A stretch of DNA of 57,068 bases, taken from NCBI RefSeq assembly GCF_016653465.1, contig NZ_NHSQ01000077.1, positions 1 through 57,068 on the forward strand. The letters are read 5' to 3'. The position numbers and the translations under genes were made by a program. Below the pieces are notes generated by a model. It was not told the origin of the DNA. It was given only the letters and a program-made list of their open reading frames with translations, and made no database searches. The stretch comes from Thiocystis minor. Its GTDB lineage: Bacteria > Pseudomonadota > Gammaproteobacteria > Chromatiales > Chromatiaceae. This document shows, one piece after another, positions 5,350-42,686 of the stretch. Numbering within the stretch: position 1 is the stretch's first letter; each line of letters starts with the position of its first letter.

Positions 5350-5496
5350 CTAGTGCAACTGTGCGAAAGTCCCAAGACCGTCTCAGGTCGTAATCGTTGT
5401 CGTTGTCGAATATTCGCCATGTCGAGACCGCGATCACGACAACGACAACGACAACGAGGAGGCCCCGGTCTCGGAACTTGAGCAGCGAAGCACTAG
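5350..5496 (+). repeat. CTAG-ended hexamer-array element, copy A
   Basis: 147 bp from CTAGTGCAACTGTGCGAAAG to GCAGCGAAGCACTAG. The two ends are imperfect inverted repeats of about 32 bases. Inside are two TTGTCG units, a loop AATATTCGCCATGTCGAGAC, then three CGACAA units in the opposite sense, so the element can fold into a long two-level hairpin. Loop orientation: forward. It ends 33 bases before the ATG of the MBL hydrolase. Confidence 0.9.
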
Positions 5497-5528
5497 GGTC
5501 ATGGAGGCTCATTTTGCCCGATTTCGGA

Positions 5529-6929
5529 ATGTCCAGCAAAACCATCGTCCATCATGGCGCCGTGGACGGCGTAACCGGTTCCTGCCACGAACTCCGGCTG
5601 GGCGATGGTCGCTCGGTGCTGGTAGACTGCGGGCTCTTTCAGGGCGCGGAGACCTCGCCCGGCGGCGCGGGCGTCGAGCGGCTCCAGATCGATTTTCCGG
5701 TGGAGCCGGTGCTGGCGCTGATCGTCACCCATGTGCATATCGATCATGTCGGGCGTATCCCTTATCTGCTGGCGGCCGGTTTCAAGGGGCCGATTCTGTG
5801 CAGCGAGGCGTCGGCGGAGCTGTTGCCGCTGGTGTTGGAAGATGCGCTGAAGATCGGCGTGACGCGGGACGCGACGCTCATCGAGCGGGTGTTGAAACTT
5901 CTGCGCGCGCGCACCATCGGCGTGCCTTATGGTCACTGGTACACGCTGGCCGAGGGCGATCCGGGTTTACGGATCAAGCTGCGGCCCGCCGGGCATATCC
6001 TCGGGTCGGCGTCCGTGGAATGCGATTTGCCCCAGGGTGGCGCGCATACCCGTATTCTCTTCTCGGGCGATCTCGGGGCGCCTTACACGCCACTGCTGCC
6101 CGCACCAAAATCGCCCTACAGCGCGGATGTGGTGGTGCTCGAAAGCACCTATGGCGACCGTCTGCACGAGGGACGCCGTGACCGCCGCCAGCGATTGCAG
6201 GCGATCGTCGAGCATGCCTTTCGCGATGGCGGAACCCTGCTGATCCCGGCATTCAGTATCGGTCGCACGCAGGAGCTGCTCTATGAACTGGAGTCGATCA
6301 TCCATCGGGATCGTCAACGGACGCTGGCCGCGGTGCGCGTCTGGGACGATGTCGAGATTATTTTGGATTCGCCGCTCGCCGCGGATTTCACCGCCGGTTA
6401 TGCCCGTCTGCGCGCGCATTGGGACCGAGAAGCCCGGCGCCGGCTCGATTCGGGCCGTCATCCGCTCGCTTTCGAGCAGGTGTTGACGGTCACCGATCAC
6501 GCGACCCATCTGCGTACGGTCGAGTATCTCAGGAGTTCGGCGCGGGCGGCCATCGTCATCGCCGCGAGCGGCATGTGTGCCGGCGGGCGCATCGTCAACT
6601 ATCTCAAGGCGATGTTGGGCGATCCCCGTCACGATGTGCTGTTCGTCGGTTATCAGGCCGCGGGGACTCCGGGGCAGGCCATTCAGCGGTATGGGCCCCG
6701 TGGCGGCTATGTTGATCTGGACGGTCAGCGTTACGACATCCGGGCCGCGATCCATACGCTTGGCGGCTATTCGGCGCATGCCGATCAAAACGATTTGATC
6801 AACTTCATCGGGCGGATGCGCGTCAAGCCGCGCGAGGTCATCCTGGTGCATGGCGATGCGCACGCCAAGGAAAGCCTGCGGCGGGAGCTGCAAGCGCGTT
6901 TTCAGGGGGTGGAGATCCGGATCGGTTGA
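5529..6929 (+). CDS. MBL-fold / beta-CASP metallo-hydrolase (RNA-processing type)
   Basis: A 466-residue metallo-beta-lactamase with a beta-CASP domain, the architecture of CPSF73-like and bacterial YSH1-type nucleases. The zinc-binding THVHIDH lies at residues 67-73. Later elements are GHILGSASVE, FSGDLG, the beta-CASP entry VVVLESTYGDR with the GGTLLIPAFSIGRTQELLYEL helix, SGMCAGGRIVNYL, and the C-terminal HTLGGYSAHADQNDL and ILVHGDAHAKESL. The family cuts RNA endonucleolytically; the substrate is unknown. I take the ATG at 5529 (MSSKTIVHHG) as the start, since everything upstream is repeat element. It stands alone. Confidence 0.92.
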   Translation: MSSKTIVHHGAVDGVTGSCHELRLGDGRSVLVDCGLFQGAETSPGGAGVERLQIDFPVEPVLALIVTHVHIDHVGRIPYLLAAGFKGPILCSEASAELLPLVLEDALKIGVTRDATLIERVLKLLRARTIGVPYGHWYTLAEGDPGLRIKLRPAGHILGSASVECDLPQGGAHTRILFSGDLGAPYTPLLPAPKSPYSADVVVLESTYGDRLHEGRRDRRQRLQAIVEHAFRDGGTLLIPAFSIGRTQELLYELESIIHRDRQRTLAAVRVWDDVEIILDSPLAADFTAGYARLRAHWDREARRRLDSGRHPLAFEQVLTVTDHATHLRTVEYLRSSARAAIVIAASGMCAGGRIVNYLKAMLGDPRHDVLFVGYQAAGTPGQAIQRYGPRGGYVDLDGQRYDIRAAIHTLGGYSAHADQNDLINFIGRMRVKPREVILVHGDAHAKESLRRELQARFQGVEIRIG

Positions 6930-7231
6930 CCTGGAAAGCGCGGTCGAACCGCAAAAAACGCGAATAACGCGAAAGGTTTCAAACTGCTAAGAGTGGTTTA
7001 GCCGCCAGCCGCCAGCTTCAGGCAGCCAGATTTTTCGTTTCAGTCACTTGGTCATGGCGAACCGCGTGCCAGGACTCGCCCATTGGAAGAAGATGTCGAT
7101 CAGCGAAACCCCCGGCATAATCGCCGCTGGCCGCTGGCCGCTGGCCGCTGGCCGCTGGCCGCTGGCCGCTGGCCGCTGGCCGCTGGCCGCTGGCCGCTGG
7201 CCGCTATATCTAGCTTTCTCGCACCCTTCCA
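6930..7231. other. Gene-free stretch with a heptamer array
   Basis: It lies between the convergent MBL hydrolase and ter operon ends. It contains short direct repeats (AACGCGAATAACGCGAA near 6959 and AGCCGCC repeated near 7002) and the heptamer array at 7124-7205. No gene is seen. Confidence 0.7.
7124..7205. repeat. Heptanucleotide tandem array (CCGCTGG)n
   Basis: 82 bases, 11.7 perfect copies of CCGCTGG. It lies 26 bases beyond the stop of the HpcH/HpaI-like gene (minus strand). Seven-base units are not a multiple of three, so this is not coding repeat. Arrays of 7-mers resemble the short tandemly repeated sequences known from cyanobacteria. Confidence 0.97.
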
Positions 7232-8098
7232 TTAGTCCATCGCGGTTCGTTCGATGATATGCCGGGCCCAGGCGCTGTGCGTGGCGACTTCGCACATGGA
7301 TCCGTCGAACTGGAAGACGGCGCGGTCGTCGGTCAGGATGCGTCGTGCCGCTTCCAGTTCCAGTTGCGAGACGCGAAAACTCGCCTCGATCGTCGGGAGC
7401 TGGCTCGGATGAATGGCGGTCTTCCCGCAGAGTCCGTGGGCGATATCCTCGCTCAGTTCTTCCCGGAGAATCTCCGGACAGTCGATATGCTCGAACACCG
7501 GGGCGGTGAGCTGAAAACCGAAGGGTTTGAAGACGGTCACCAGATGGGCGATGGTGTGTCCCAGGGGTGTGCGGTAGATGGTGCGGTCGCGGGGCCGGCG
7601 AATGCCGAGGATGGACAGCAGGTCGTTGCCGCCGATGCGCAGCGCCAGAATCCGCTTCTGATAGCCGCGGTCGAGCAGATGGTCGCGCAGTTCGATCATT
7701 CTGGAGGTGTCGAAGACATCCCGGGTTTCGAGCGTCGGCATGCACAGATGCCGGGAGTCCATGAGCAGGCTCAGATAGTCATCCACATTGCTCAGATCCA
7801 GCTTGGGCAGGACGAATCCGTCCAGTTTCTCCACACCCGGCAGCGCGAGCAACCAAGTCAGGATCTCGGGATTGCGCACGCGCACGAAGCGCAGCGCGGA
7901 TGACCTGACCTGCATCCGTTCCAAGGCGTCGCGGAGGTTGTCGAGCCCCGCCGCGAGATCCTCGGGCGCAACGGCGTCTTCGGTGCAAAAGATGACAGAA
8001 CGCAGTTCCGGCCACTTGGCGCCGTTGGCAATCTTCAGAACATCCCGATGGGTTGCAGGGACATACAGGGAAGCGCCCAGTCGGTAGGCATTAAGCAT
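7232..8098 (-). CDS. HpcH/HpaI aldolase / citrate-lyase-beta-like protein of ter operon
   Basis: 288 residues, last gene of the ter operon. It is a TIM-barrel protein of the HpcH/HpaI/CitE type: MLNAYRLGASLYVPATHRDVL opens the barrel, SVIFCTEDAVAPEDL carries the acidic segment, FVRVRNPEILTWLL the conserved Arg, FVLPKLDLSNVDDYLSLL the Lys strand, and LCGKTAIHPSQL the C-terminal signature. In this family these bind Mg and acyl-CoA or keto acids. Stand-alone members in ter operons are thought to take part in making a small metabolite, but the reaction is unknown. I use the ATG at 8098, which overlaps the upstream gene by 8 bases. Confidence 0.88.
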   Translation of the reverse strand: MLNAYRLGASLYVPATHRDVLKIANGAKWPELRSVIFCTEDAVAPEDLAAGLDNLRDALERMQVRSSALRFVRVRNPEILTWLLALPGVEKLDGFVLPKLDLSNVDDYLSLLMDSRHLCMPTLETRDVFDTSRMIELRDHLLDRGYQKRILALRIGGNDLLSILGIRRPRDRTIYRTPLGHTIAHLVTVFKPFGFQLTAPVFEHIDCPEILREELSEDIAHGLCGKTAIHPSQLPTIEASFRVSQLELEAARRILTDDRAVFQFDGSMCEVATHSAWARHIIERTAMD

Positions 8099-9206
8099 CG
8101 GATAAACCCTTGATGAGCGAGACGGCCTGGTAGGGCAATGCTGGATCGACCTCCCAATGCACTTGTTTTTCTTGGGCCAATTGTAAGATATGAAGCGCCT
8201 CCGGTGCGTGCGGATCGCGGAGGATGAGCAACCTCGGGACGCGCCGCAGCAGGACGCGGGTTGCCTCGCCAATGCCTGGCTTGATGAGATTCTCGTCCAT
8301 GATCCCGAAGCGATCCTTGATCGCGGCGAGCCAGATCCGGGAGCGTTCGCGCGCGCGCAGCGGATCGACCGGAGTGGGGCAGGGCGCGTAATCTTCCTCC
8401 AGCAAGGCGCGGATCTCCCGCAGAAGTTCGTCGACAAACCATCGGGACAGATCTCCCGAGGCGAATTCGCGGTAAAACACGCAGCCGTGGAAGTCGTCGG
8501 GTCCGATCCCTTCGTGCAGGATCGAGCGGCTGATCAGGCCCGACATGGTTGCATTCAGGATGCTCGACGGGATCAGGTAATCCTCGTCCGTGGGCGCCAT
8601 GCCGACGCCGGCTAGATCGGTCAGGGCGAAGAGCGTGGCGTCCAGACGCATGCCCTGCGTCCTGTGAAAGAATTCGACCGACGCGGCCAGTTCGCGGGCG
8701 ATGACGCCTTTGCCGGTCCAGCCATCCACGAAGACGATACCGTCCGGCGCTCTTGCCTCGTCATTCATGATAAAGCGCAGTGCGTTTTGGTCGATGCCCC
8801 GGTCGCGAATGATCGAGAGGGAATAATGCGCCGTCGGGCGATCCAGGATGTCGGTCAGCACATGCTTGAGCGTCACGCCAACCGGGGTGCCGGCGCGCGC
8901 GAGCGAGACGAGCGTGATGTCGTTCTGTCGGCGTGCCGCGACGATGGCGGCTAGGTCAAGCAGACCTTGCGCCATGCGTCGGCGGTTCATGGCGAACGCC
9001 TGGTGGAACATATCCATGTAACGCGGCGAGGGCAGGGTCTCGGGACTCAGCATCTCGCTGTAATGCCGTTGACCGCTTTGGATCAGGCGCTCTTTCTCGG
9101 CTACTTCGATTAGTTCCATCGCGATGGGCTTGAGCAGGATGTGGACGTCCTCGGGGCGGTAGCTGCCTGAAAAACGCGCGCGCTGTTCGACTGGAGGCAT
9201 GGGCAT
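8091..9206 (-). CDS. StiP-family protein: PRTase-like domain plus Pelota-type RNA-binding domain
   Basis: 371 residues from the ATG at 9206, which has CCGGAG just upstream; a second ATG at 9200 is possible. The longer open frame runs into repeat DNA. The region about 75-260 is a phosphoribosyltransferase-like fold (LVSLARAGTPVGVTLKHVL, then PDGIVFVDGWTGKGVIAREL as a PRPP-loop equivalent). The last 75 residues (TRVLLRRVPRLLILRDPHAP onward) resemble the Pelota-type RNA-binding domain joined to it in ter operons. Some databases name the family cysteine protease StiP, a label I would not take as functional evidence. It overlaps the next gene and so is probably co-translated. Confidence 0.8.
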   Translation of the reverse strand: MPMPPVEQRARFSGSYRPEDVHILLKPIAMELIEVAEKERLIQSGQRHYSEMLSPETLPSPRYMDMFHQAFAMNRRRMAQGLLDLAAIVAARRQNDITLVSLARAGTPVGVTLKHVLTDILDRPTAHYSLSIIRDRGIDQNALRFIMNDEARAPDGIVFVDGWTGKGVIARELAASVEFFHRTQGMRLDATLFALTDLAGVGMAPTDEDYLIPSSILNATMSGLISRSILHEGIGPDDFHGCVFYREFASGDLSRWFVDELLREIRALLEEDYAPCPTPVDPLRARERSRIWLAAIKDRFGIMDENLIKPGIGEATRVLLRRVPRLLILRDPHAPEALHILQLAQEKQVHWEVDPALPYQAVSLIKGLSDA

Positions 9207-9257
9207 GGGGCTCCGGTGAGGGGTTTTTTGCAAGAGGACGAAGGTCACGAATGCCTT

Positions 9258-9335
9258 CTGGGATCGCCGAGTTGCACTCGGCGTCTCCGCTCTGGTCTGG
9301 CGGCCGGGGAGCCGAGTGCAACTCGGCGATCCCAG
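9258..9335. repeat. Perfect 25-bp inverted repeat inside the ter operon
   Basis: Left arm 9258-9282 and right arm 9311-9335 are exact reverse complements over 25 bases, with CGAGTTGCACTCGGC as the core, around a 28-base loop. Each arm also holds its own small palindrome (CGAGTTGCACTCG). It lies between the HAD and StiP genes. A degenerate copy is at 2713-2774. It may be mobile or may act as an RNA stem within the operon message. Confidence 0.95.
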
Positions 9336-9363
9336 AGGTGCCTCGTCGAGTGAGGCCGATGGC

Positions 9364-10122
9364 TTACAGCAAGGGTCGGCCGAAGGTCTCCCCAAATAAC
9401 TGCGAACCGCGTGGCGTCAGCGAATAATCGCATTCGGCCATGAAGGCGCCGTCGATGAGGCTGTCGCCGATTCCAACGGTCATCAGTTCGCCCCATTCCC
9501 CGCTCAGTTTTTCGATCAGATAGCGCACGGCGTGTTCCTTGCCGAGCGTGCGGGGCAGCACCGCGAGGTTGTTGCCGTTGCGATGCAGTCGATAGACCCT
9601 GGACCGATCCGCGACCCAGGGCTGGATCAAGGCGCGCTGCAAGAGATCCAGATCGCCGTCGCGGCCATCCCGATATTTGGCGACCAGATAAAAGGGCAGG
9701 TCGAAATCCTCGATGATCCGGACGTGGGCGGAGAGTCCCTGTCGGACGATGAAGGTATCGACATGATCGAGCAGTGCGTTCAAATCCTCCAGGTGGTTCC
9801 GAGAGGCGGTCGTCATGCGTTCCAGCCAGGGCGCGTCGGGAACGCCATCGGGGTTCAGGACGATTCCGCCATAGTCGATGATGCGCCAACTCTCGAAGGG
9901 CAGTTCCACCCGACGGAGCGAATCCAGATCCCGCGCGGTGGTGGGTATCACCGTCGTATTGGTGTCCAGCAGATGCCAAAACGCCTGCTGTTTCGCCGTC
10001 ATGAAGGAATGGGCGCTGCCGTCGCGGAGATAAGCGACTGGCCGCAGAGCCTCATCGGTCGGACATTTGGGTCGACTCTGGAAGAGGGTATCGTCCAGAT
10101 CGAGAAAAACCAGCTTGCGCAT
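9364..10122 (-). CDS. HAD-superfamily phosphatase of ter operon
   Basis: 252 residues. The haloacid-dehalogenase active site is complete: FLDLDDTLF with the nucleophile Asp8 and acid Asp10, TTARDLDSL as motif II, the lysine around LGKEHAVRYL, and GIGDSLIDGAFM as the acidic motif IV. The cap and fold resemble sucrose-phosphate-phosphatase-like HADs. Ter operons often carry such a phosphatase with ATP-grasp and phosphoribosyltransferase genes, which suggests dephosphorylation of a nucleoside-like intermediate; the substrate is unknown. The ATG at 10122 has no clear Shine-Dalgarno sequence because an 87-bp repeat begins just two bases upstream of it. Confidence 0.88.
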   Translation of the reverse strand: MRKLVFLDLDDTLFQSRPKCPTDEALRPVAYLRDGSAHSFMTAKQQAFWHLLDTNTTVIPTTARDLDSLRRVELPFESWRIIDYGGIVLNPDGVPDAPWLERMTTASRNHLEDLNALLDHVDTFIVRQGLSAHVRIIEDFDLPFYLVAKYRDGRDGDLDLLQRALIQPWVADRSRVYRLHRNGNNLAVLPRTLGKEHAVRYLIEKLSGEWGELMTVGIGDSLIDGAFMAECDYSLTPRGSQLFGETFGRPLL

Positions 10123-10123
10123 C

Positions 10124-10210
10124 TTAAACCGCGTTCGGCATGACAGGCGTTGTCATGGTCTTGGCTTGACGTCGCCACGACTCGTGCATAACGGAGTTGA
10201 CGCGGTTTAA
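10124..10210. repeat. 87-bp TTAAACCGCG-ended element, copy E1
   Basis: Exactly 87 bp, with termini TTAAACCGCG and CGCGGTTTAA. An internal hairpin CATGACA/TGTCATG lies near the left end (10138-10157). It abuts the start codon of the HAD gene (minus strand), so the usual ribosome-binding position is repeat sequence. Confidence 0.92.
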
Positions 10211-10231
10211 GAGTATGACTTTTTTATTCAT

Positions 10232-10318
10232 TTAAACCGCGTCTCGCCGATGGTTGTGAGCTGCCGCAAGTCTGGCGATGCCTGTGGGCCTTGCCTGTCA
10301 GTCTAAGACGCGGTTTAA
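10232..10318. repeat. 87-bp TTAAACCGCG-ended element, copy E2
   Basis: Exactly 87 bp, with termini TTAAACCGCGTC and GACGCGGTTTAA. It is separated from E1 by 21 AT-rich bases. Its right end contains the TAA stop codon of terB (10315-10317). The internal sequence is not obviously alignable to E1, so the shared features are the ends and the length. Confidence 0.92.
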
Positions 10319-10770
10319 GCCAGCTCGAAATCCGCCGGGTTGAGGGCGAGTTCCATGGCGATCTTGCGGGCGACGCGCTTCTCGCTATCGTCGAAATTGC
10401 CGTCGGCGGCGGCGATGGCGATGATCAGACGCATGATGAGACGAGCGGCGTCATCCTTGCCCTTCATCTTGCGAATCGCATCGTAGGCCTTGGCCTCGCC
10501 CAGATCCTTGTCGAATTCGATCTGGCTCATGGCGTTCTGGAAGGCGTCGATCAGATCCTTGCTGGCGAAGACGGACAGCGCCTCATAGTTCTCGATGAAG
10601 CGCATCATCTTCTGTTTTTCCTCGGAAGAGACCACGCCATCGGCCATGGAGATCAGCACCGAACCGCTGATGGCCGCGTTCAGAAAATCCTTGTTCTTGA
10701 ATTTCATCGCCTCGGTTTTCAGTTCGGAGGCTTTCTGTTTCAGGTTGCTGACGAAGTCTTGGAAGCTCAT
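10315..10770 (-). CDS. terB: Tellurite resistance protein TerB
   Basis: 151 residues from the ATG at 10770 (MSFQDFVSNLKQKASELKTE); eight codons upstream are open but not conserved. The TerB helical domain is complete: FLNAAISGSVLISMADGVVSSEEKQKMMRFI and RLIMRLIIAIAAADGNFDDSEKRVARKIA hold the two acidic metal-binding stretches (ADGxxxxxE, ADGxFxxxE). TerB is a cytosolic/membrane-associated protein that binds divalent metal and in E. coli contacts TerC. The length matches the E. coli family. Its stop codon lies inside the E2 repeat. It follows terA by 66 bases. Confidence 0.95.
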   Translation of the reverse strand: MSFQDFVSNLKQKASELKTEAMKFKNKDFLNAAISGSVLISMADGVVSSEEKQKMMRFIENYEALSVFASKDLIDAFQNAMSQIEFDKDLGEAKAYDAIRKMKGKDDAARLIMRLIIAIAAADGNFDDSEKRVARKIAMELALNPADFELA

Positions 10771-10836
10771 GGCGTTTGCTCTCTGTTGGATCACGATTGA
10801 CGAAAATGTTGTTCAGTGGGCAGGCGACGCTGGCGA

Positions 10837-12030
10837 TCAATCCTTCTTGCCTCTTACCCAATCCAAGCCCCAGCGATGCGTCTTGTCGACATCGAGATGG
10901 CCACGGTAGTAATCGACGAGCTTGGTGATCTTGACCGATCCGCCCTGGTTCTCGATCAGGGCGATGGCGCACATGGGCCGATCGTTGCGGCTCGAATCGA
11001 GCTGGATCTCGATTTCCGGCTGTCCGGGCGTTTTCAGGGTGATGCGCGCGTTGGCCTCGGCCCAATTGGGAGTCCCTTCGTAGATGAAAGCATAGACGAC
11101 GATGCGCTGGATCTCGTCCCAATACTGGCCGTTGATGCGTAGGTTTTCGCCCTCGGTCCGGGTGCCGGTGCGGTCGTCCGCGTCGAGGGCGATATAGGGC
11201 GGATCCCGGTAGTCGCCGAAGGTGTTTCCGAGCGCCTGGACCACGCTCTTGGAGCCGTCCTTGAGTTCGTACAGACAGCCGAGATCCAGATCGATGCTGT
11301 TGGAACGGGTGCCGCCGAAAAAGCCCTTTTTGACGGGGCCGGCGCGGGTTGTCCAGTTGAGATTGATCAGAATCTCGCCGTGGGCCGCATTGGCTTTCTT
11401 GTCGAGCGAGACCGTGTTGCCGCGCTTTTCCAGGGTGATCTTGCTCAGATTGAGCGGTGCCGTCTGGGGTTTGGGCGGAACGGGCGCCGAGACTGGCGCG
11501 GGCGCATCCTCCACGGTGCCGCCGAAATGTCCGACCAGCGCCGCCATGCCGCCGTTGAAACCCTGGCCCAGCGCGCTGGTGCGCCAGACGCCATCCTTCC
11601 GGTAGATCTCCAGCAGCATCAGCGCGCGCTCGGCGGCGAAGTCGGCCCCGCTGAAGTCGAAGCGCCCCGTCTCGCGGCCGGCGTCCATGAAACGCACATG
11701 ACCGCTGCCGATGCTGGACATGGCGCCGGCGCCGTCGAGCGCGGCGGTGATCGTCAGACGCTCGATGGTCGAAGGCAGTTTTCCAAGGTCGACGGCAAAG
11801 CCCGCCGCATCGCCCGCAGGCGTTTCCAGCCGCACGCCGCCGCAGGGCGTCGTCGGCTGATTGAAGAAGGTCATATAGCGATCGTCGGAGAGCTTGCCCT
11901 GACCATCCAGACCGAAGCAGGCGAAATCGAGAATCAGATCGGGTGCGTTCACGGCCACGCCGAGCGTGAAGCGTTGGCCGTTGGGGACCAGATCGGCGAT
12001 TTTGGCCCGTTGTCCGCGTTGTAGATTCAT
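10837..12030 (-). CDS. terA: TerA-like protein with two TerD-type domains
   Basis: 397 residues from the ATG at 12030 (MNLQRGQRAKIADL). It has two TerD-like beta domains, about 1-165 and 215-395, joined by a proline-rich linker (APAPVSAPVPPKPQTAP). Domain 1 has DLILDFACFGLD and YMTFFNQP; domain 2 has SIDLDLGCLYEL, DDRTGTRTEGE and RPMCAIALIENQGG. TerD-type domains bind calcium through paired acidic loops and are soluble or membrane-peripheral. TerA is part of the core ter set for tellurite, phage and colicin tolerance. It starts 4 bases after the terD stop. Confidence 0.9.
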   Translation of the reverse strand: MNLQRGQRAKIADLVPNGQRFTLGVAVNAPDLILDFACFGLDGQGKLSDDRYMTFFNQPTTPCGGVRLETPAGDAAGFAVDLGKLPSTIERLTITAALDGAGAMSSIGSGHVRFMDAGRETGRFDFSGADFAAERALMLLEIYRKDGVWRTSALGQGFNGGMAALVGHFGGTVEDAPAPVSAPVPPKPQTAPLNLSKITLEKRGNTVSLDKKANAAHGEILINLNWTTRAGPVKKGFFGGTRSNSIDLDLGCLYELKDGSKSVVQALGNTFGDYRDPPYIALDADDRTGTRTEGENLRINGQYWDEIQRIVVYAFIYEGTPNWAEANARITLKTPGQPEIEIQLDSSRNDRPMCAIALIENQGGSVKITKLVDYYRGHLDVDKTHRWGLDWVRGKKD

Positions 12031-15405: not shown

Positions 15406-15443
15406 CTCAAGATTCCTCGATGTGAAATTGATTGATTAATCGC

Positions 15444-15530
15444 TTAAACCGCGCCCGCTCCGACAGTGAAAGAGGCTGCCGAGGTTGTTTCAATCCAAAA
15501 GCATCGCCGACCGCGCCGGGCGCGGTTTAA
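15444..15530. repeat. 87-bp TTAAACCGCG-ended element, copy E3
   Basis: Exactly 87 bp, with ends TTAAACCGCGCCC and GGGCGCGGTTTAA (13-base perfect inverted repeat). It holds the TAA stop of the AIM24-like gene (15527-15529). Its interior aligns with E4 at 44825: CTCCGACAG near the left and CAATCCAAAA then CATCGCC, ACCGC near the right. Confidence 0.95.
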
Positions 15531-16210
15531 TGGGCCTGCGGTTGGAATAATCCGCGGTTGCGCGAGCAGATCACGACCTTGCCCTGGCCCCGAAAGCGGA
15601 GCACCAGACCCTCGCCGGAGGTCACCGAATTGACGATGTTCCCGAAGAACCCGCCCCCGGTCTGCGGCATGCCGACCTCGTACTGCAGATTGGACGACCA
15701 GGCGACCGCATGGTTGTTGTCGATCACGGTTTCGCGATCGGGCGCGATGTCGAGCGTGAAGATCGAGCCGAACCCGGACACCGCCAGTTTGCCACGCCCC
15801 GTCGCCTCCATGATGACGAATCCGCCGGTGCCGCCGAACAGCCCGCCGCCGACAGTGTTCATGCGCGCGCGCACCTCGACGGAGGAGTCTGCCGCCACGA
15901 AACTGCCATCCGACAGCGTGTAGGCATTGCCCGGCCCGACATCGAGCAGTTCGATGGAGCCTGGAAGGGTGGGCGACAGCAGACAGTCGCCATCGCCGCT
16001 CACGGCCTCGATTTCCTGCTGAAACAGCGATTCGTCGGTGGCCATGCGCCGCAGCAGGGCACGCCCCAGACCGCCCCGCAGTTGGCCCTTGACCTGAAGC
16101 GCCGCCTCCATCATGACCATGGCGCCCGATTCGCAGAAGATTTTTTCGCCCTTTTGCAGACTGACATGCAGGAAGGGATCAATCTCCCCGGTGACGGTGA
16201 ACGTGGGCAT
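15527..16210 (-). CDS. AIM24 / TIGR00266 family protein
   Basis: 227 residues. It matches the AIM24-like beta-helical family (TIGR00266): FLHVSLQKGEKIFCESGAMVMME at the start, then GGLGRALLRRMATDESLFQQEI, PTLPGSIELLDV, the glycine repeat GGGLFGGTGGFVIMEATGRGK, and IDNNHAVAWSSNLQYEV. Members are cytosolic, often sit in ter operons, and are thought to be scaffolding or envelope-stress proteins; mitochondrial Aim24 shares the fold. The function here is unknown. Its stop codon lies in an 87-bp repeat. A GC-rich hairpin lies just upstream of its ATG. Confidence 0.87.
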   Translation of the reverse strand: MPTFTVTGEIDPFLHVSLQKGEKIFCESGAMVMMEAALQVKGQLRGGLGRALLRRMATDESLFQQEIEAVSGDGDCLLSPTLPGSIELLDVGPGNAYTLSDGSFVAADSSVEVRARMNTVGGGLFGGTGGFVIMEATGRGKLAVSGFGSIFTLDIAPDRETVIDNNHAVAWSSNLQYEVGMPQTGGGFFGNIVNSVTSGEGLVLRFRGQGKVVICSRNRGLFQPQAH

Positions 16211-17012: not shown

Positions 17013-17640
17013 CCATCGCCTGGAAGGCGATGGTATCAAGTAACGGCTAAAGCCGGCGATGTCGGCTGAAGCCGAGTCGGTCCCCGCCGAAGCAGGCTTA
17101 AGTCGAAGGGGGCTCCCTGATCGGGGAAGCTTCCTCTTCACCCGATCGGGGAAGCTTCCTCTTCATATGGAGAAGGTCGCATCCTGATCATGACACTGGT
17201 TGGCAATAGACGCTTTGATGATCTCGTCGGTGACCTGACCGCTGCTGCGGCAACAGTAACCGCGCGCCCACACATGGCGCCCCCAGTCGCGTTTGCGGAT
17301 CTCCGCAAACGCTCGCAGCAGGATGAACGCGCTTTTCCCTTTCAACGGCTGGACCAAGCGGCTGATGGTGACTTGCGGAGGAATCGAGAGCATCACGTGG
17401 AGATGATCGGCGGAGCGATGTCCCTGCAGAATATCCACGCGCTGCCGCCGGCACTCCTCTCGCACCACATCCCCCCCCCGCTCCGCCACCGCCTCGCGCA
17501 GCACTTTGTGGCGGTACTCGGTGATCCAGACCACGTGGATGCGGATCGAGAAGACCGTGCGAGAGCCGTGACGATGTTCTTCCATGGTTCCGAAGTCGCA
17601 AAAAGGAAATGCTCAAGCTTCCGCCTAAAGGCGGGGGTTT
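17013..17640 (-). mobile_element. IS200/IS605-type insertion sequence (single-tnpA)
   Basis: The transposase gene is flanked by the subterminal hairpins expected of this family. On its 3' side are CCATCGCC/GGCGATGG (17013-17033), CGGCTAAAGCCG and TCGGCTGAAGCCGA, then two 22-base direct repeats (17119-17140 and 17144-17165) containing GGAAGCTTCC. On its 5' side is CCGCCTAAAGGCGG followed by GGGTTTTTT (17621-17640). No inverted terminal repeats are expected, and no tnpB gene is present. The outer limits are approximate. Confidence 0.7.
17163..17585 (-). CDS. tnpA: IS200/IS605 family transposase TnpA, catalytic Tyr apparently replaced
   Basis: 140 residues, the full length for this single-strand transposase. 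The HUH metal motif is intact (ADHLHVM, His61 and His63). The C-terminal helix should read AYIANQ or EYIENQ with the nucleophilic tyrosine, but here it is EIIKASIANQ with serine at position 126 (codon at 17208-17210, TCT; a TAT codon would restore Tyr). The protein is otherwise intact, so the element looks recently inactivated. That this residue is the nucleophile comes from knowledge of the family and should be confirmed by alignment. The start ATG at 17585 opens with MEEHRHGSRTVFSIRIHVVWITEYR, standard for the family. Confidence 0.88.
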   Translation of the reverse strand: MEEHRHGSRTVFSIRIHVVWITEYRHKVLREAVAERGGDVVREECRRQRVDILQGHRSADHLHVMLSIPPQVTISRLVQPLKGKSAFILLRAFAEIRKRDWGRHVWARGYCCRSSGQVTDEIIKASIANQCHDQDATFSI

Positions 17641-23823: not shown

Positions 23824-23970
23824 CTCGTGCAACTGTGCGAAAGTCCCAAGACCGTCTCAAGTCGTTGTCGTAATCGAATATTCGCCATGTCGAGACCGCG
23901 ATTACGACAACGACAACGACAACGACAACGAGGATGCCCCGGTCTCGGAATTTGAGCAGCGAAGCACTAG
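23824..23970 (+). repeat. CTAG-ended hexamer-array element, copy B
   Basis: 147 bp, the same length as copy A. It begins CTCGTGCAACTGTGCGAAAG (one base off CTAG) and ends GCAGCGAAGCACTAG. It has one TTGTCG on the left arm and four CGACAA on the right. The loop, AATATTCGCCATGTCGAGAC, is in forward orientation. It sits 49 bases upstream of the malate synthase start. Confidence 0.9.
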
Positions 23971-36765: not shown

Positions 36766-38055
36766 TCAGGCACCCATGGCGCGTTTCAGATCGCCCTCGG
36801 CATCGCCGCCGGTAAGCCGCAGATCATAGCGTTCCTGCAGAATGGCGAAGACGTTGGGCGTGACGAAGGCCGGCGGATTCGGGCCGAGCGTGATGCCCTT
36901 GACTCCGAGACTGAGCAGCGTCAGAAACACGGCTACGGCCTTCTGCTCGAACCAACTGATGACCAGTGTCAGCGGTAGGTCGTTGACGCCGCAGTCGAAC
37001 GCCTTGGCCAGTGCCACCGCGACTGAGATCGCGCCATAGGCATCGTTGCACTGCCCCATGTCCATCAGACGCGGCAGGCCCAGATGCTCGCCATAGTCGT
37101 AATCGCGGATGCGAAACTTGCCGCAGCCGAGCGTCAGGATAAAGGAATCCTTTGGCGTGGCTTGCGCATAATCGCTGAAATAATTGCGGCCCTTCTCGGC
37201 ACCGTCGCAGCCGCCGATGACGAAGAAATGGCTGATCTGGCCGGCCTTGACGGCATCGACGATGGTCTGGGCCCGGTCGAGCAGCACGGTACGATGGAAA
37301 CCGACCGTGGATTCTCCCACGATGTTTTCCTCGCAAGGCTCGCAGCGACGCGCTTCCTCGATGACCGCCGAAAAATCCTCGTCCAAACGCTGACCGCCTG
37401 GTACCGCCGTGGCGCGCATGGTGAAGAGTCGGCCCTTGTAGCTGTCGGGCGGGATCAGCACGCAGTTGGTGGTCACGACCACGGGGCCGGGGAAGGCCGC
37501 GAATTCCTTTTTCTGGTTCTGCCAAGCGCCGCCATAGTGACCGGCCAGATTCGGATGCTGCTGGAACTTCGAGTACATATGGGCCGGCAGCATCTCGCCG
37601 TGGGTGTAGACCTTGATGTCGGTGCCCTTGACCTGTTCGAGCAGGTTCCAGAGATCCACCAGGTCATGCCCCGAGACCAGAATCCCCGGTCCCGCCTGGG
37701 TGCCTTCCTTGACCTTGATCGGCGCTGGCTTTCCGAAGGACTCCATATGGCCCTCGTCGAGCAGTTCCATCACTCGCAGATTCATTTCGCCGCATTTGAG
37801 ACAGAGTTCCAGCAGGGTCTCCAGGTCGAAGTTGACGTTGGTCATGGTCGCGAACAGGGCTTCCTCGATGAAGGACGAAACCTGTTCGTCGAATTTGCCC
37901 ATTCTCCGGGCATGATGCGCGTAGGCGGCCATACCCTTGAGTCCGTAGAGCAGGGTTTCCTGGAGCGACTGGACATCGGCGTCCTTGCCGCACACACCGG
38001 GGGAGGTGACGCAGGCGGTCTGGCGGAAGGTTTGTTCACACTGGTTGCAATACAT
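36766..38055 (-). CDS. hcp: Hybrid-cluster protein (hydroxylamine reductase), short form
   Basis: 429 residues from ATG 38055. The N terminus has the [4Fe-4S] cysteines Cys3, Cys6, Cys15 and Cys22 (MYCNQCEQTFRQTACVTSPGVCGK). Hybrid-cluster ligands are visible in SGHDLVDLW, TTNCVLIPP, EENIVGESTVGFHRT, GGCDGAEKGRNYFSDYA, LGCGKFRI and PLTLVISWFEQKAVA. Class I/II enzymes are about 540 residues; this one lacks about 110 in the N-terminal helical region, as in class III proteins. Hcp reduces NO or hydroxylamine and protects against nitrosative stress. No hcr reductase gene is adjacent. An FNR/DNR-like site lies upstream. Confidence 0.93.
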   Translation of the reverse strand: MYCNQCEQTFRQTACVTSPGVCGKDADVQSLQETLLYGLKGMAAYAHHARRMGKFDEQVSSFIEEALFATMTNVNFDLETLLELCLKCGEMNLRVMELLDEGHMESFGKPAPIKVKEGTQAGPGILVSGHDLVDLWNLLEQVKGTDIKVYTHGEMLPAHMYSKFQQHPNLAGHYGGAWQNQKKEFAAFPGPVVVTTNCVLIPPDSYKGRLFTMRATAVPGGQRLDEDFSAVIEEARRCEPCEENIVGESTVGFHRTVLLDRAQTIVDAVKAGQISHFFVIGGCDGAEKGRNYFSDYAQATPKDSFILTLGCGKFRIRDYDYGEHLGLPRLMDMGQCNDAYGAISVAVALAKAFDCGVNDLPLTLVISWFEQKAVAVFLTLLSLGVKGITLGPNPPAFVTPNVFAILQERYDLRLTGGDAEGDLKRAMGA

Positions 38056-38164
38056 GGAAACCTCTGGATCTGAAAAATAGCTCAAGGAAAATCGGCACGC
38101 GGGATGGGTCAGGGCCTGGCCGGGTGCGCGGGGGAGAGTGTCGCGGGAGCGGGGCGGGATGGCC

Positions 38165-38178
38165 TTGACCGAGATCAA
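38165..38178 (-). promoter_or_regulatory. FNR/DNR-type half-symmetric site upstream of hcp
   Basis: TTGACCGAGATCAA, nine of ten matches to TTGATNNNNATCAA. It lies about 110 bases upstream of the hcp start. CRP/FNR-type regulators (FNR, DNR) control hcp in many bacteria. The rest of the 378-base gap (38056-38433) shows only a triple CCTTTTCAG repeat near 38346-38372 and a CGCGGTTT end motif at 38403. Confidence 0.45.
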
Positions 38179-38433
38179 ATGGCTTCTGACGTGTGTCGCT
38201 GCCCCCATCGCACTGGCGCTTCCGGTCTCAAACCGAATCCTTGCCGTTGGAGATGCCAGGGCGCGCCCGCACTTATAATGATGGTGAAGAGGCATGAATG
38301 GCCGTTGAGCCTGCGTTCAACCGTGTCCAGACGGAAAAGCGTCGTTTTCAGCCTTTTCAGCCTTTTCAGGCGTCGCGACCGCCTCTGGGGCGATCAGCAA
38401 GACGCGGTTTTTTATCCCTTAGGAGTTAATGTG

Positions 38434-38670
38434 ATGAAACTGATGATGATTTCGATGACTCTGCTGGCGGCCGCCACCATCGCTGCCTGCGGAACCACCA
38501 CCGCATCGCGTACGGGTAGCGGCGCGGCGCTCGGGGCGGCCACCGGCGCGGCAGTCGGTTCATTGAGCGGTAACGCGGGTAAGGGCGCGCTCATTGGCGC
38601 GGGAGCCGGCGCCCTTGGCGGTTACGTCCATGATCGCAACGAGAAAAGCAAAGAGCAGCAGCGGTGGTAG
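38434..38670 (+). CDS. Glycine-zipper lipoprotein
   Basis: 78 residues. It has a signal peptide with lipobox TIAAC (lipidated Cys19), then a glycine-zipper membrane segment (GAALGAATGAAVGSLSGNAGKGALIGAGAGALGGYVHD, the 2TM/YMGG type), and a short charged end. Such proteins are small outer-membrane or periplasmic lipoproteins (OsmB/SlyB-like) tied to envelope stress. The ATG at 38434 has AGGAG 8 bases upstream. It stands alone before ppnP. Confidence 0.85.
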   Translation: MKLMMISMTLLAAATIAACGTTTASRTGSGAALGAATGAAVGSLSGNAGKGALIGAGAGALGGYVHDRNEKSKEQQRW

Positions 38671-38760
38671 GCTGACCGCGGAACCCGTCGGCTTCGGGCG
38701 GCGGGTTTCGTCGGCAAAGCCCGCTTGCACCCAATCCCACGCATCGCCAGAGAAGTCGTT

Positions 38761-39075
38761 ATGTCTGAATTCACCAATGTCACCGTGACCAAAAAAGCGA
38801 ACTGCTATTTCGATGGTCTGGTGACCAGTCGCACCCTGACGTTCCCGGACGGGCGCATCAAAACCCTCGGAATCATGCAGCCCGGCGAATTCGAATTCGG
38901 CACCCAGGCGCGAGAACTGATGGAAATCATGAGCGGAGAACTGGAGGTATTGCTCCCCGACGAGGAGCAATGGCGTCAGATTCAGGGGGGCGAATCGTTC
39001 GAGGTGCCCGCCAATTCCAAATTCCGCGTCCGGGTGCGCGCCTTGACGGATTATTGCTGTTCGTTTCTTTCCTGA
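38761..39075 (+). CDS. ppnP: Pyrimidine/purine nucleoside phosphorylase PpnP
   Basis: 104 residues from ATG 38761 (MSEFTNVTVTKKANCYFDG), the full length of the PpnP (DUF1255/YaiE) cupin family. Conserved blocks are GKVTSRTL-like GLVTSRTLTFPDGRIKTLGIMQPGEFEFGT, ELMEIMSGELEVLLP and GGESFEVPANSKFRVRV. It phosphorolyses purine and pyrimidine nucleosides to the base and ribose 1-phosphate. It fits the salvage theme of the window (apt, mtnP, permease). It is followed by a hexamer-array element. Confidence 0.95.
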   Translation: MSEFTNVTVTKKANCYFDGLVTSRTLTFPDGRIKTLGIMQPGEFEFGTQARELMEIMSGELEVLLPDEEQWRQIQGGESFEVPANSKFRVRVRALTDYCCSFLS

Positions 39076-39104
39076 ACCGGGTAAACCAGCCTCTGGCTCG
39101 AACC

Positions 39105-39250
<146 letters not shown>

Positions 39251-39258
39251 GTTTCCGC

Positions 39259-40983
39259 ATGGACCTCACCAATCAAATCATCCTGATCGTCTCGCTCGTG
39301 CTGTTCGCCAGCGTCCTGGCCGGCGCCTTGAGCAGCCGGCTGGGCGCGCCCCTGCTGCTGGTGTTCCTGGTCATCGGCATGCTGCTCGGCGAGGACGGCC
39401 CCGGCGGCATCGAGTTCGACGATGTGCGCGTGGCTCACCTGTTCGGCAGCCTGGCGCTGGCCGTCATCCTGTTCGATGGCGGTCTGGCGACCCCCTATCG
39501 AAATTTCCGGGTCGGACTCAAACCGGCGCTCGGGCTGGCGACTATCGGCGTTCTGATCACCACCCTGATCACCGGGGCGTTCGCCGTCTGGTGGCTGGGT
39601 CTGGGCTGGCTTGAGGGGCTGCTGCTCGGCGCCATCGTGGGTTCCACCGATGCCGCGGCGGTGTTTTCGCTGCTGCGTTCCAGGGGCTTGGAGTTGAAGC
39701 AGCGCGTGGGGGCCACGCTGGAGATCGAGTCCGGCAGCAACGATCCCATGGCCGTCTTCCTGACCATCGCGCTGATCGAGCTGGTCCTCCATCCTCAGGG
39801 CAATCCAGGGCTGACGCTGTTGACCGAGTTTGCCCGTCAGATGGGGCTGGGCGCCTTGATCGGCCTGGCCGGCGGCTTCGGTCTGGTGTGGCTGGTCAAC
39901 CGTCTGACGATGTCGCCGGGACTCTATCCGCTTGCGGTCCTGGCGGGCGGCTTGAGTCTCTTCGGCGTGACTGCGGTCCTCGATGGCAGCGGCTTTCTGG
40001 CCATCTATCTAGCCGGACTGGTGGTCGGCAACCGTCCGCTCCAGTCCCGCCTTGACATCAAACGTTTCCACGACGGGATCGCCAGTCTGGCGCAGATCGG
40101 CATGTTCCTGATGCTCGGGCTGCTCGTCACCCCCTCGGAATTTTTGCCGGTGGCGCTGGATGCGCTGCTGTTCGCGGCGGTGCTGATCCTGCTGGCACGG
40201 CCGCTGGCGGTCTGGCTCTGTCTGCTGCCGTTTCGCTTTCCCTGGCGCGAGCAGGTGTTCATCGGCTGGGTGGGTCTGCGCGGGGCGGTGCCCATCATCC
40301 TGGCGCTCTTCCCGCTGCTGGCGGGTCTGGAGCAGGCCCAGATGTACTTCAATATTGTGTTCTTCGTGGTCCTGCTGTCGCTGCTGATCCAGGGCTGGAC
40401 GCTGTCATCGCTGGCGCGGTTGCTGAAGCTGGAGATCCCGCCGACCACCCAGGTGGTGCAGCGGGTGGAACTGGACATTCCCGGCCAGCAGGAACTGGAA
40501 CTGGTCGGCTATCGTTTGGCGGCCAATTCGCCGGCGGTCATCGAGAAGCGGGCTGGCTTGACCCTGCCCAGGGGCGCGCGGGTGGTGGCGATTCTGCGCG
40601 ACAGGCATTTGCTGGAGCATCTGGAACCGCTCGACCCCCGTCCGGGCGACTATCTTTATCTGATGGCGGATCCGACCGACCTGCCGACTCTCGACCGCTT
40701 GTTCGTCGCGAGCCCCGCCGCGGCACGTCTTTCCGACCTCGCCTTTTTTGGCGAGTTCGTCCTCAACGGCGATGCCCGCGTGGGCGATCTGTGCACGGCT
40801 TACGGGATCTGTCTGGCCGACAGCGAGCATCGATTCACGCTCGATGAGCTGATTCGTCGTGGGCTCAACGCGCATCCGGTCGTCGGCGACCGGTTGCAAC
40901 TGGGGAGTGTGGAATTGGTGGTGCGGCGAGTGCAGGATGACCGGATCACGCAGGTGGGACTGAAGTTGCCCCGTGCAAACTGA
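39259..40983 (+). CDS. nhaP2: CPA1 family K+/H+ antiporter (NhaP2/CvrA-like)
   Basis: 574 residues. The N-terminal ~390 residues form about 12 membrane segments of the cation/proton antiporter fold, with the family motifs AVILFDGGLATPYRNF, GAIVGSTDAAAVFSLLR and ESGSNDPMAVFLTIALIEL (the paired Asn-Asp), and VGLRGAVPIILALFPLLAG. A cytosolic RCK/TrkA-C-like domain (about 400-485, VELDIPGQQELELVGYRLA...GDYLYLMADPTDL) and a CorC-HlyC-like terminal domain (about 490-574) follow, as in NhaP2. It exports K+ or Na+ in exchange for protons and is probably nucleotide-regulated. Its start is preceded by repeat copy C. Confidence 0.93.
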   Translation: MDLTNQIILIVSLVLFASVLAGALSSRLGAPLLLVFLVIGMLLGEDGPGGIEFDDVRVAHLFGSLALAVILFDGGLATPYRNFRVGLKPALGLATIGVLITTLITGAFAVWWLGLGWLEGLLLGAIVGSTDAAAVFSLLRSRGLELKQRVGATLEIESGSNDPMAVFLTIALIELVLHPQGNPGLTLLTEFARQMGLGALIGLAGGFGLVWLVNRLTMSPGLYPLAVLAGGLSLFGVTAVLDGSGFLAIYLAGLVVGNRPLQSRLDIKRFHDGIASLAQIGMFLMLGLLVTPSEFLPVALDALLFAAVLILLARPLAVWLCLLPFRFPWREQVFIGWVGLRGAVPIILALFPLLAGLEQAQMYFNIVFFVVLLSLLIQGWTLSSLARLLKLEIPPTTQVVQRVELDIPGQQELELVGYRLAANSPAVIEKRAGLTLPRGARVVAILRDRHLLEHLEPLDPRPGDYLYLMADPTDLPTLDRLFVASPAAARLSDLAFFGEFVLNGDARVGDLCTAYGICLADSEHRFTLDELIRRGLNAHPVVGDRLQLGSVELVVRRVQDDRITQVGLKLPRAN

Positions 40984-41311
<328 letters not shown>

Positions 41312-41575
41312 TTACCAGCTATTGGCCGCACTAAGGGCCGCGCGGGCCTCCTCGGTGGGATAAATCGCCTTGCCCGCCTCGTCGAGGAGGGTAATCGCGA
41401 GGGTCGGACAGCCTTCGGCCGCCGAGCGCATCATCAGTTGGTCCCCAAGGCCGCCAGTCGGAAGCGCCTTGAGATCATCGCCGATATCGTCTTCCTTGAA
41501 CGCTTGGGGGCAGGCCACCCAGCAGGTACCGCAGCCAATACAGGCGGCAGCTTCAACCTCGATCTTGCTAATCAT
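41312..41575 (-). CDS. Ferredoxin, single [4Fe-4S] or [3Fe-4S] cluster
   Basis: 87 residues from ATG 41575 (MISKIEVEAAACIGCGTC). Ligand cysteines are Cys12, Cys15, Cys18 and the distant Cys56 in EGCP, with an extra Cys22 before proline. This matches Desulfovibrio/Thermotoga-type monocluster ferredoxins of about 60 residues plus a C-terminal extension (ITLLDEAGKAIYPTEEARAAL). It is a cytosolic one-electron carrier; the partner is not evident from neighbours. Longer in-frame starts at 41620 or beyond are possible but add no conserved sequence. Confidence 0.88.
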   Translation of the reverse strand: MISKIEVEAAACIGCGTCWVACPQAFKEDDIGDDLKALPTGGLGDQLMMRSAAEGCPTLAITLLDEAGKAIYPTEEARAALSAANSW

Positions 41576-41848
41576 GTGTACGAAGGGTCCATAGCGGGTT
41601 AGGCTGCGTGTCGTCTGCATCGCGCAGCAGGATTTCAAACGCCAAAAGATACGCTGGGGTGGCGCGGGGCGCAACGAGATAGGATACCCCACACGCGGAA
41701 GGCGACGACGGCTGGCACGCGAGAGCGCGCAAATTCAGCGTACGTGTTCATCGTTGGGTAACCCGTATAATCGACCATCGGACGTGATCGGCCAATCCGA
41801 GAAACCATGCATGTCTTTATCAGGGAATCATCGAGAGAGCCTTCATCC

Positions 41849-42337
41849 ATGTCAGATGCCCCATTCGACCTCATCGACGCCAAGGACGCCTTCGCCGATA
41901 GCGACTGGTTCCATGTCTGCCGTCAGACCCAGACGCCTTACGTCGTCGTGCGCAGTGGCGAGACATCAGCCGACGTGCTTTGGGACTATGTCACGCTTCC
42001 GCCGAGTTGCGATGCCCTGTTGCGCGGCCATTTTGCCTCGCTGGAAAACAACGCCCGCGCGATTTTCGAGCGCTTCGCCATTCCGGAATCGCATCTCAGG
42101 ATCAAGCCTACCCTGATCTGTTTCGACAGACTGCCGTTCGATCATGCCAAGCGTGCCGCGGCGGAACTTCACGGCCTCATTTCAACCTATCTGCCCGATG
42201 CCCGGACTGTCTCGCGTGGCGCTCCGGTTCCTTGCGAGTCGGCCGCGCCAGCCGGCGACAGGATGCGGGACGAACTGGAAGCGCCCAGCCTCCGGCGGCT
42301 TTGGGTCGAAGAACAAAGCCACGCCAGTTCGGTCTGA
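41849..42337 (+). CDS. Hypothetical protein
   Basis: 162 residues from ATG 41849 (MSDAPFDLIDAKDAFADSDWFHVCR), with a GAGAG ribosome-site candidate and a TATAAT at 41766-41771 upstream. It is soluble, with no signal or membrane segment. Notable stretches are PYVVVRSGETSADVLWDYVTLPPSCDALLRGHFASLENNARAIFERFAIPE and ICFDRLPFDHAKRAAAELHGLI. The tail (about 125-162) is proline- and charge-rich. I do not recognise a family. Codon usage and third-position GC look like those of its neighbours, which supports a real gene. Confidence 0.6.
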   Translation: MSDAPFDLIDAKDAFADSDWFHVCRQTQTPYVVVRSGETSADVLWDYVTLPPSCDALLRGHFASLENNARAIFERFAIPESHLRIKPTLICFDRLPFDHAKRAAAELHGLISTYLPDARTVSRGAPVPCESAAPAGDRMRDELEAPSLRRLWVEEQSHASSV

Positions 42338-42502
42338 ATCCTCTGCCGCAGCGGCGCCGAAGTCGAGTCGCTCAACCTGCAACGCCAGAGCTTCCAGCCC
42401 TCACGGAACGGGACAGACCAAGCGGGTCTATCGACGCAAAGACCTGGTTTCGTTCGCATGACTGTCGCTCGGAAGAACTAAATACATGCTTTTATTTCAG
42501 AG

Positions 42503-42524
42503 AAAACACAATATATTGTGTTTT
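42503..42524. promoter_or_regulatory. Perfect palindrome containing a NrdR box
   Basis: A perfect 22-base palindrome whose inner 16 bases are ACACAATATATTGTGT, in full agreement with the NrdR consensus (ACACWATATWTWGTGT-like). NrdR is the ATP/dATP-responsive repressor of ribonucleotide reductase genes. TATATT at 42512-42517 could be a -10 covered by the box. A second box at the usual 31-base spacing is not convincing (TAAATACATGCTTTT near 42478 is a weak match). The next gene is nrdB, whose start is 378 bases away. Confidence 0.75.
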
Positions 42525-42559
42525 CGGTTGGAGATACTGTCTGGATGTCCTAGAATGAC

Positions 42560-42686
42560 CTCGTGCAACTGTGCGCAAGTCCCAAGACCGTCTCAGGTCG
42601 TTGTCGCGGTCTCGACATGGCGAATATCGATTACGACAACGACAACGAGGAGGACCGGGGCTCGGAACTTGAGCAGCGAAGCACTA
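42560..42686 (+). repeat. CTAG-ended hexamer-array element, copy E
   Basis: 127 bp, from CTCGTGCAACTGTGCGCAAG to GCAGCGAAGCACTAG, with the shortest arms (one TTGTCG, two CGACAA). Its arms are in the same orientation as copies A and B, but the loop reads CGGTCTCGACATGGCGAATA, the reverse complement of theirs. It lies between the NrdR box and nrdB. Confidence 0.9.

What the first reader, a model, noticed from the sequence alone, without database searches (positions are those of the whole stretch)
5350..42686. Family of CTAG-bounded elements with inverted TTGTCG hexamer arrays and a loop that occurs in both orientations
Seen: five copies (5350-5496, 23824-23970, 39105-39250, 41101-41260, 42560-42686) share about 32-base imperfect inverted ends (CTAGTGC...), arms of 1-6 TTGTCG/CGACAA units and a central loop. 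Hexamer number differs between copies. Normalised to the arms, the loop reads ATTCGCCATGTCGAG in three copies and its reverse complement in two. Inference: either recombination between the inverted arms flips the loop, or the family holds two founder forms. The elements look like non-autonomous MITE or REP-type mobile DNA; CTAG could be a duplicated target site.
Basis: seen in the sequence. Interest (0 to 1): 0.85.

Follow-up and report, generated by a model that had tools for sequence, protein, structure and literature searches.

The report
Mobile hairpin elements with flipping loops
The window holds five copies of a small non-coding mobile DNA element that is scattered through this purple sulphur bacterium's genome, and the central loop of its DNA hairpin appears to have flipped over after insertion at several sites, so the same site in two related species can carry the loop in opposite directions.

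Summary
In detail: five copies, loops 3 forward (F): 2 reversed (R). The genome (Chromatiaceae, same genus as an uncultured Thiocystis MAG) has at least 46 copies with a readable loop; 45 were scored, 23 F: 22 R. Relatives: MAG G004 5 F: 7 R, single-contig G005 1: 2, Thiorhodococcus mannitoliphagus 11: 0. 'Two founder forms' alone fails: of 8 insertions shared by two species with readable loops, 4 have opposite loops (2 complete in both species, 2 at G004 contig ends). Arms keep their direction in 10 of 10 shared insertions; orientation is not clustered on a poorly resolved arm tree. TAATCG and TGATCG hexamers beside the loop mostly keep their loop side, but one hexamer variant occurs in R copies only, so some R copies also share descent. 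Mobility: CTAG ends and two single-tetranucleotide empty sites fit IS630-type insertion; an IS630-like element here has resembling ends (14/20 and 11/20), but no parent with the same ends was found. Best reading: IS630-type MITE whose hexamer stem lets replication template switching invert the loop. Opposite loops at shared sites are shown in assemblies, without reads; the mechanism is inferred. New variant of a known kind.

The parts
5350..5496 (+). MITE copy 1, loop F; CTAG at both ends. Left arm 5350-5390, TAATCG+TTGTCGx2 5391-5408, loop 5409-5430, CGATCA 5431-5436, CGACAAx3 5437-5454, right arm about 5455-5496
   Evidence: G004 site without the element
23824..23970 (+). MITE copy 2, loop F; left terminus CTCG, right CTAG; upstream of a malate synthase gene
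   Evidence: absent from G004 and G005, where the flanks have changed
39105..39250 (-). MITE copy 3, arms on minus strand, loop R; the arm end near 39250 has lost its terminal bases
   Evidence: absent from the G005 site
41101..41260 (-). MITE copy 4, arms on minus strand, loop F; terminus near 41260 lost
   Evidence: absent from the G004 site
42560..42687 (+). MITE copy 5, loop R; left terminus CTCG, right CTAG
   Evidence: one CTAG at the G004 site without the element
44741..44792 (.). Related-looking TTGTCG hairpin with a different loop (CTCGGATACT) and no family ends; not counted as a copy

Best explanation
This is a family of non-autonomous elements of the MITE kind, mostly about 130-190 bp, placed at CTAG/TA targets by an IS630-type (Tc1/mariner-like) transposase. 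Each full copy is a long hairpin: imperfect inverted ends, stems of TTGTCG/CGACAA hexamers and a loop of about 22 bases. After insertion the loop, with the variant hexamers beside it, has been inverted in place at a number of sites, because the hexamer arrays are short inverted repeats at which replication can switch template (spacer inversion). The arrays also gain and lose units, and some copies have lost the core. Shown in assemblies: the family and its spread, sites without the element, shared insertions with opposite loops. Inferred: that the turned block is loop plus neighbouring hexamers, template switching as the mechanism, and IS630-type transposition.
For: Shared insertions of G004 with G000 or G005 (flank pieces 87-97% identical); loop orientation: F/R in L020/L054, L025/L096, L027/L092; R/F in L041(G005)/L090; F/F in L004/L048, L028/L040; R/R in L024/L057, L034/L060: 4 of 8 opposite. 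L025/L096 share unusual arm bases and are sisters with 99% SH-aLRT support. L041 and L090 share the loop base GAGAT, found in 3 of 71 copies (the third is L034), in opposite orientation. Orientation is unclustered on a tree of 57 of 71 copies: 18 changes, shuffled mean 19.1, 196 of 500 shuffles as low; L001 (F) and L017 (R) have identical arms over the 76 aligned columns. Hexamers at the loop: A side TAATCG in 15 of 29 F and 13 of 31 R; B side TGATCG in 13 of 29 F and 14 of 31 R (G054 left out). Arms keep direction to the flanks in 10 of 10 shared insertions, read by eye. Transposition: two sites without the element show one CTAG-like tetranucleotide (CTTG, CTAG), read by eye; an element with CTAGTAC ends, HTH_32 and DDE_3 matches lies in G000 and one with nearly the same ends in G004; beyond CTAG the MITE ends match its ends at 14/20 (left; 0 of 20,000 shuffles as good) and 11/20 (right; 84 of 20,000). 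Literature: template switching at short inverted repeats inverts spacers (PMC8604942, passages incl. abstract); ISY100 of the IS630 family inserts almost only at TA, which is duplicated (PMC2170065, passages incl. abstract).
Against: No autonomous element with the same ends was found; G005 IS630-type ends match the MITE no better than many shuffles do (1,346 to 7,313 of 20,000), and I compared ends after seeing the resemblance. Two of the four opposite pairs rest on G004 contigs that end inside the element. G000, G004 and G054 are drafts and no reads were available. One A-side hexamer, TCATCG, occurs in 7 of 31 R and 0 of 29 F copies (Fisher p 0.011), so orientation is not fully free of descent; TTGTCG on the B side of L025/L096 is too common (19 of 60) to mark one core. 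Array length follows the arm only weakly (right longer than left in 15 of 20 F, p 0.04; 11 of 19 R, not significant; ties left out). Uniform hexamer runs present on both sides are short: the smaller of the two runs is 0, 1, 2, 3 or 4 units in 5, 23, 27, 11 and 5 of 71 copies. Three of the five window sites gave no clean empty site. In the yeast paper the inverted spacers involve only 2-5 bp.
Confidence: 0.7

Rival explanations
1. Two founder forms: an F and an R element each spread by transposition and no inversion happens in place.
For: Both forms are common; all 11 scored G054 copies are F; TCATCG beside the loop occurs in R copies only, 7 of 31 against 0 of 29.
Against: 4 of 8 shared insertions have opposite loops; orientation is unclustered on the arm tree and two copies have identical aligned arms with opposite loops (39 of 52 inner branches are open).
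Confidence: 0.05
2. Assembly artefact: short-read assemblers pass through a loop between identical inverted repeats in either direction.
For: G000 has 198 contigs, G004 about 500, G054 at least 504; contigs of G004 (L090, L092, L099) and G054 (L084, L086, L087, L089) begin or end inside elements.
Against: In L020 (F) the loop is tied to its right arm by two CGATCA and one CGACAA, in L054 (R) to its left arm by about two units, in L096 by two; the smaller uniform run of the two sides never exceeds four units, 24 bp, shorter than usual assembly words (recalled). The single-contig G005 has 1 F and 2 R. A random artefact would hardly leave 11 of 11 G054 copies F.
Confidence: 0.08
3. Inversion by a dedicated site-specific recombinase, with the hexamer arrays as recombination sites (a phase-variation switch).
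For: Orientation is near 1:1 in G000; the central loop is better conserved than the arms (mean column consensus 98.0 against 94.0%, p 0.0007, 17 and 76 columns, 39 G000 copies).
Against: Array length varies widely (uniform runs up to 8 units left and 11 right); the turned segment is only about 30-40 bp, short for known invertases (recalled). No recombinase was sought.
Confidence: 0.1
4. Ectopic gene conversion: cores are swapped between dispersed copies through the shared hexamer arrays and enter in either orientation.
For: Two G054 copies (L091, L093) combine the common core and a similar right arm with another left end, so modules seem to recombine at the arrays.
Against: L041 and L090 carry the same uncommon loop base in opposite orientation, which fits inversion in place; this is one locus, with one partner at a contig end.
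Confidence: 0.17

Closest known systems
RUP (repeat unit of pneumococcus), proposed to be mobilised by IS630-Spn1 (PMC2229807 and PMC3049150, passages only)
   Same: 107 bp non-coding repeat, ends like an IS630 element, insertion at TA, tightly folded.
   Different: The passages read mention no hexamer-array stem and no loop in two orientations; here the candidate parent is only a partial match.
Correia repeat enclosed elements of Neisseria (inversion reported by Elbeyioglu et al. 2017, known to me only from one passage and a reference in the review PMC10969869)
   Same: Bacterial MITE with a change of orientation at its site.
   Different: The review says the element undergoes inversion; here the arms keep direction in 10 of 10 shared insertions and only the inner core differs.
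Template-switch spacer inversion at short inverted repeats (PMC8604942, passages; Schofield et al. 1992 in E. coli seen only as a reference, not held)
   Same: A spacer between perfect inverted repeats is inverted, recurrently and reversibly.
   Different: There gene sites with changes of 2-5 bp; here dozens of dispersed copies, a spacer of about 22-40 bp and a hexamer-array stem.
Flip-flop hairpin-loop inversions of chloroplast DNA (PMC6342102, passages)
   Same: Hairpin loops with 18-19 bp flanking repeats in both orientations, homoplastic.
   Different: Not a mobile repeat; the inverted loops are 5 and 9 bp.

Membership tests
MITE (non-autonomous DNA transposon) | Short non-coding repeat, many dispersed copies, inverted ends | tested here: met
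   46 copies with a loop in G000; mostly about 130-190 bp with imperfect inverted ends, 13/20 identical beyond CTAG
MITE (non-autonomous DNA transposon) | Target-site duplication and empty sites | tested here: met
   2 of 5 window sites: at 5350 (CTTG in G004) and 42560 (CTAG in G004); the other three lack the element in a relative but have altered flanks. CTAG at both ends in 12 of 45 G000, 5 of 12 G004, 1 of 3 G005, 7 of 11 G054 copies, unread ends counted as no
IS630-derived MITE | Ends shared with an autonomous IS630 element | tested here: inconclusive
   CTAG shared; 14/20 (left) and 11/20 (right) to the G000 element beyond it. Of 27 DDE_3 loci scanned, 4 showed a CTAG-type end pair at 900-1700 bp, none with the MITE's own ends; several loci are cut by contig ends
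IS630-derived MITE | Insertion at TA, preferably in CTAG | tested here: met
   a 2-bp TA and a 4-bp CTAG duplication cannot be told apart. The CTAG preference of IS630 was seen only as a reference title
REP element with RAYT transposase | Short GTAG-headed palindrome (recalled) mobilised by a Y1 transposase | tested here: inconclusive
   Y1_Tnp matches exist in 4 of 4 genomes, one in the window; size and CTAG ends fit IS630 better; linkage to copies was not tested
Recombinase-driven inverton | Fixed recombination sites and a cognate recombinase | not tested
   No recombinase search was made; variable arrays speak against fixed sites
Template-switch spacer inversion | Inverted spacer between short inverted repeats, arms unchanged, recurrent | tested here: met
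   on assemblies only; the biochemical mechanism is not testable with these tools

The most novel reading that the evidence does not exclude
The hexamer-array stem is a selected inversion device: a MITE that carries its own loop-flipping hot spot, with a loop held constant by a protein that binds it in either orientation, which makes it a dispersed set of binary switches near genes.
Probability: 0.08. Interest if true: 0.85.

Novelty: new variant of a known kind. Interest (0 to 1): 0.52.

Why it matters
Dozens of similar hairpins, with insertion sites shared between species, form a natural replicate experiment for the rate and limits of loop inversion in bacteria. It also warns that such loops are poor phylogenetic characters and that hexamer-stem MITEs remodel after landing.

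Tried and rejected
Rfam at gathering scores found nothing at the copies (one group II intron match elsewhere). A Y1/RAYT transposase was considered as the mover because one lies in the window; size and CTAG ends fit IS630 better, but linkage was not tested. Searching for other sequences with the MITE's ends gave further copies, truncated ones, ends-only forms of about 64-66 bp (L100, L123, L129) and stray single ends. The ends-only junctions show short direct repeats (GGTC, GGC; by eye), so I read them as core deletions. A stray left end in G005 (L130) had no partner at the distances scanned. CTAGTAC-ended relatives led to the IS630-type element. Array length as a marker of what turns was weak. 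The exact loop pattern had no hit in viral contigs and the element none in plasmids at E 1e-5. Literature searches for such a MITE or for such repeats in Thiocystis or Chromatiaceae listed nothing that I recognised as the same thing; most listed papers were seen only as listings. A faulty left-end pattern was replaced.

Rows dropped: L039 (arms too short to orient) from orientation counts; before the weak hits L102, L103, L105 (G004), L058 (G005), L095/L107 and L106 (G054), and the core-only hits of G008 and G029 (L042, L043, L047, L050). Of 71 oriented copies, 57 had both arms for the tree. Loops were accepted at 14 or more of 17 matches, which may raise apparent loop conservation. First-look caps (40 scored candidates per genome) mean copy numbers are lower bounds.

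Full report
Observation. The five copies are present at the stated coordinates with the stated parts. In the frame of the arms the loop is forward (F) in three and reversed (R) in two. Copy 1 folds as one long hairpin, better than each of 200 shuffles. Two of the five copies lack one outer terminus.

Where it occurs. The window is part of contig C77 of a 5.3 Mb draft genome, G000. A loop pattern in named genomes hit 19 stretches, all in an uncultured Thiocystis MAG and in Thiorhodococcus mannitoliphagus (records very near the window's own may be left out there). The MAG is G004, of G000's genus, by matching contig numbers and lengths. Of 54 genomes (G000 among them) 5 had a match at E 1e-5: G000, G004 and G005 strongly, G008 and G029 only at the core. 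G005 is one contig of 5,017,071 bp, perhaps T. violascens (recalled, not checked). Four further members of the genus (G001, G002, G003, G006) had none. T. mannitoliphagus is G054.

Copies and orientation. After gathering full and partial hits, read a loop in 46 of 47 G000 loci given to it (one of them, L039, could not be oriented), 12 of 18 G004 loci, 3 of 3 G005 loci and 11 of 12 G054 loci. Counts: G000 23 F and 22 R; G004 5 and 7; G005 1 and 2; G054 11 and 0. These are lower bounds on copy number.

Inversion in place. Comparing flanks between genomes gave ten shared insertions, nine G000/G004 and one G005/G004; seven later G000 loci added none. Eight have a readable loop in both: L004/L048 F/F, L028/L040 F/F, L024/L057 R/R, L034/L060 R/R, L020/L054 F/R, L025/L096 F/R, L027/L092 F/R, L041/L090 R/F. 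In L032/L100 the G004 copy has no core and in L015/L104 only a remnant is left. So 4 of 8 are opposite; without the two where a G004 contig ends in the element (L092, L090), 2 of 6. The arms point the same way relative to the flanks in all ten (by eye). L025 and L096 are sisters at 99% SH-aLRT and share unusual arm bases; L041 and L090 share an uncommon loop base. The tree shows no clustering of orientation, but it has 76 columns and 39 of 52 inner branches are open.

What turns. The hexamers touching the loop differ on its two sides, most often TAATCG on one and TGATCG on the other, at similar frequencies in F and R copies. The simplest reading is that the turned block is the loop plus neighbouring variant hexamers, with exchange in the outer uniform TTGTCG arrays. 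Against a fully free exchange: TCATCG on the A side is found in 7 of 31 R and 0 of 29 F copies (p 0.011), in both G000 and G004, which suggests a subset of R copies with common descent. Average array lengths hint that arrays stay with the arms, but weakly.

Mobility. At window 5350 the G004 site reads ...CACGCC-CTTG-GG... where G000 has CTAG at each end of the element; at 42560 G004 has one CTAG (by eye). At 39105, 41101 and 23824 relatives lack the element but the flanks have changed. The G000 element at C83:13289-14599 has CTAGTACAGCGGCGC ends and two open pieces matching HTH_32 and DDE_3, the make-up of IS630-type transposases (recalled). Another with nearly the same ends lies in G004 and two with other CTAGTAC ends in G005. 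Beyond CTAG the MITE's ends resemble those of the G000 element (14/20 and 11/20), not those of G005. I conclude IS630-type, parent not found.

Mechanism. Spacer inversion by template switching at short inverted repeats is documented in yeast, reversible, and seen only with arms longer than 9 bp (PMC8604942, passages); loops of chloroplast hairpins flip-flop (PMC6342102, passages). Here uniform hexamer runs present on both sides amount to 6-24 bp in 66 of 71 copies and none in 5, to which matching variant hexamers may add. The contrast between near 1:1 in Thiocystis and all-F in the closely similar G054 copies fits inversion that is slow against a burst of transposition but frequent over species divergence (inference).

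Loop conservation. The 17 central loop bases are better conserved than the arms. Loop detection favours intact loops, so this may be partly bias; otherwise something still selects the loop, or exchange between copies homogenises it. This is unexplained.

Context. Genes next to the window copies include an epimerase, a beta-CASP hydrolase, a hybrid sensor kinase, malate synthase, a sodium/proton exchanger and the small chain of ribonucleotide reductase. Two mechanical ORFs start within or just before an element, but their domain matches begin at residues 60 and 88, the first beyond the element and the second also beyond it by position.

Noticed in passing
window 5094-5279: A second dispersed repeat of about 186 bp just upstream of copy 1, with some 22 places in G004 and 6 in G005 listed; the G004 site lacks it together with copy 1.
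   Followed up: no
window 15436-15531: Another repeat of about 95 bp with 3 places in G004 and 5 in G005 listed.
   Followed up: no
window 44815-44900: A repeat of about 85 bp with 5 places in G005, next to the sixth TTGTCG hairpin.
   Followed up: no
window 17163-17585: Y1 (IS200-like) transposase gene, possibly RAYT-like.
   Followed up: partly
window 56871-57042: Group II intron D1-D4 match to Rfam.
   Followed up: no
L124, L126, L127, L128, L160: Other small repeats with CTAGTAC ends in Chromatiaceae; the one in L127 has TTGTCG arms with a different loop.
   Followed up: partly
L152-L158, L161 (G008): G008 holds about 20 CTAGTAC/CTAGTGC ends; the eight loci read are followed by a different, longer repeat.
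   Followed up: no
L043 (G029): TTGTCG-armed hairpin with yet another loop, flanked by GACCGTC and ACGGTCTCG like this family's arms: perhaps a distant relative.
   Followed up: no
L091 and L093 (G054): Copies with the common core and a similar right arm but a different left arm, as if joined at the hexamer array.
   Followed up: partly
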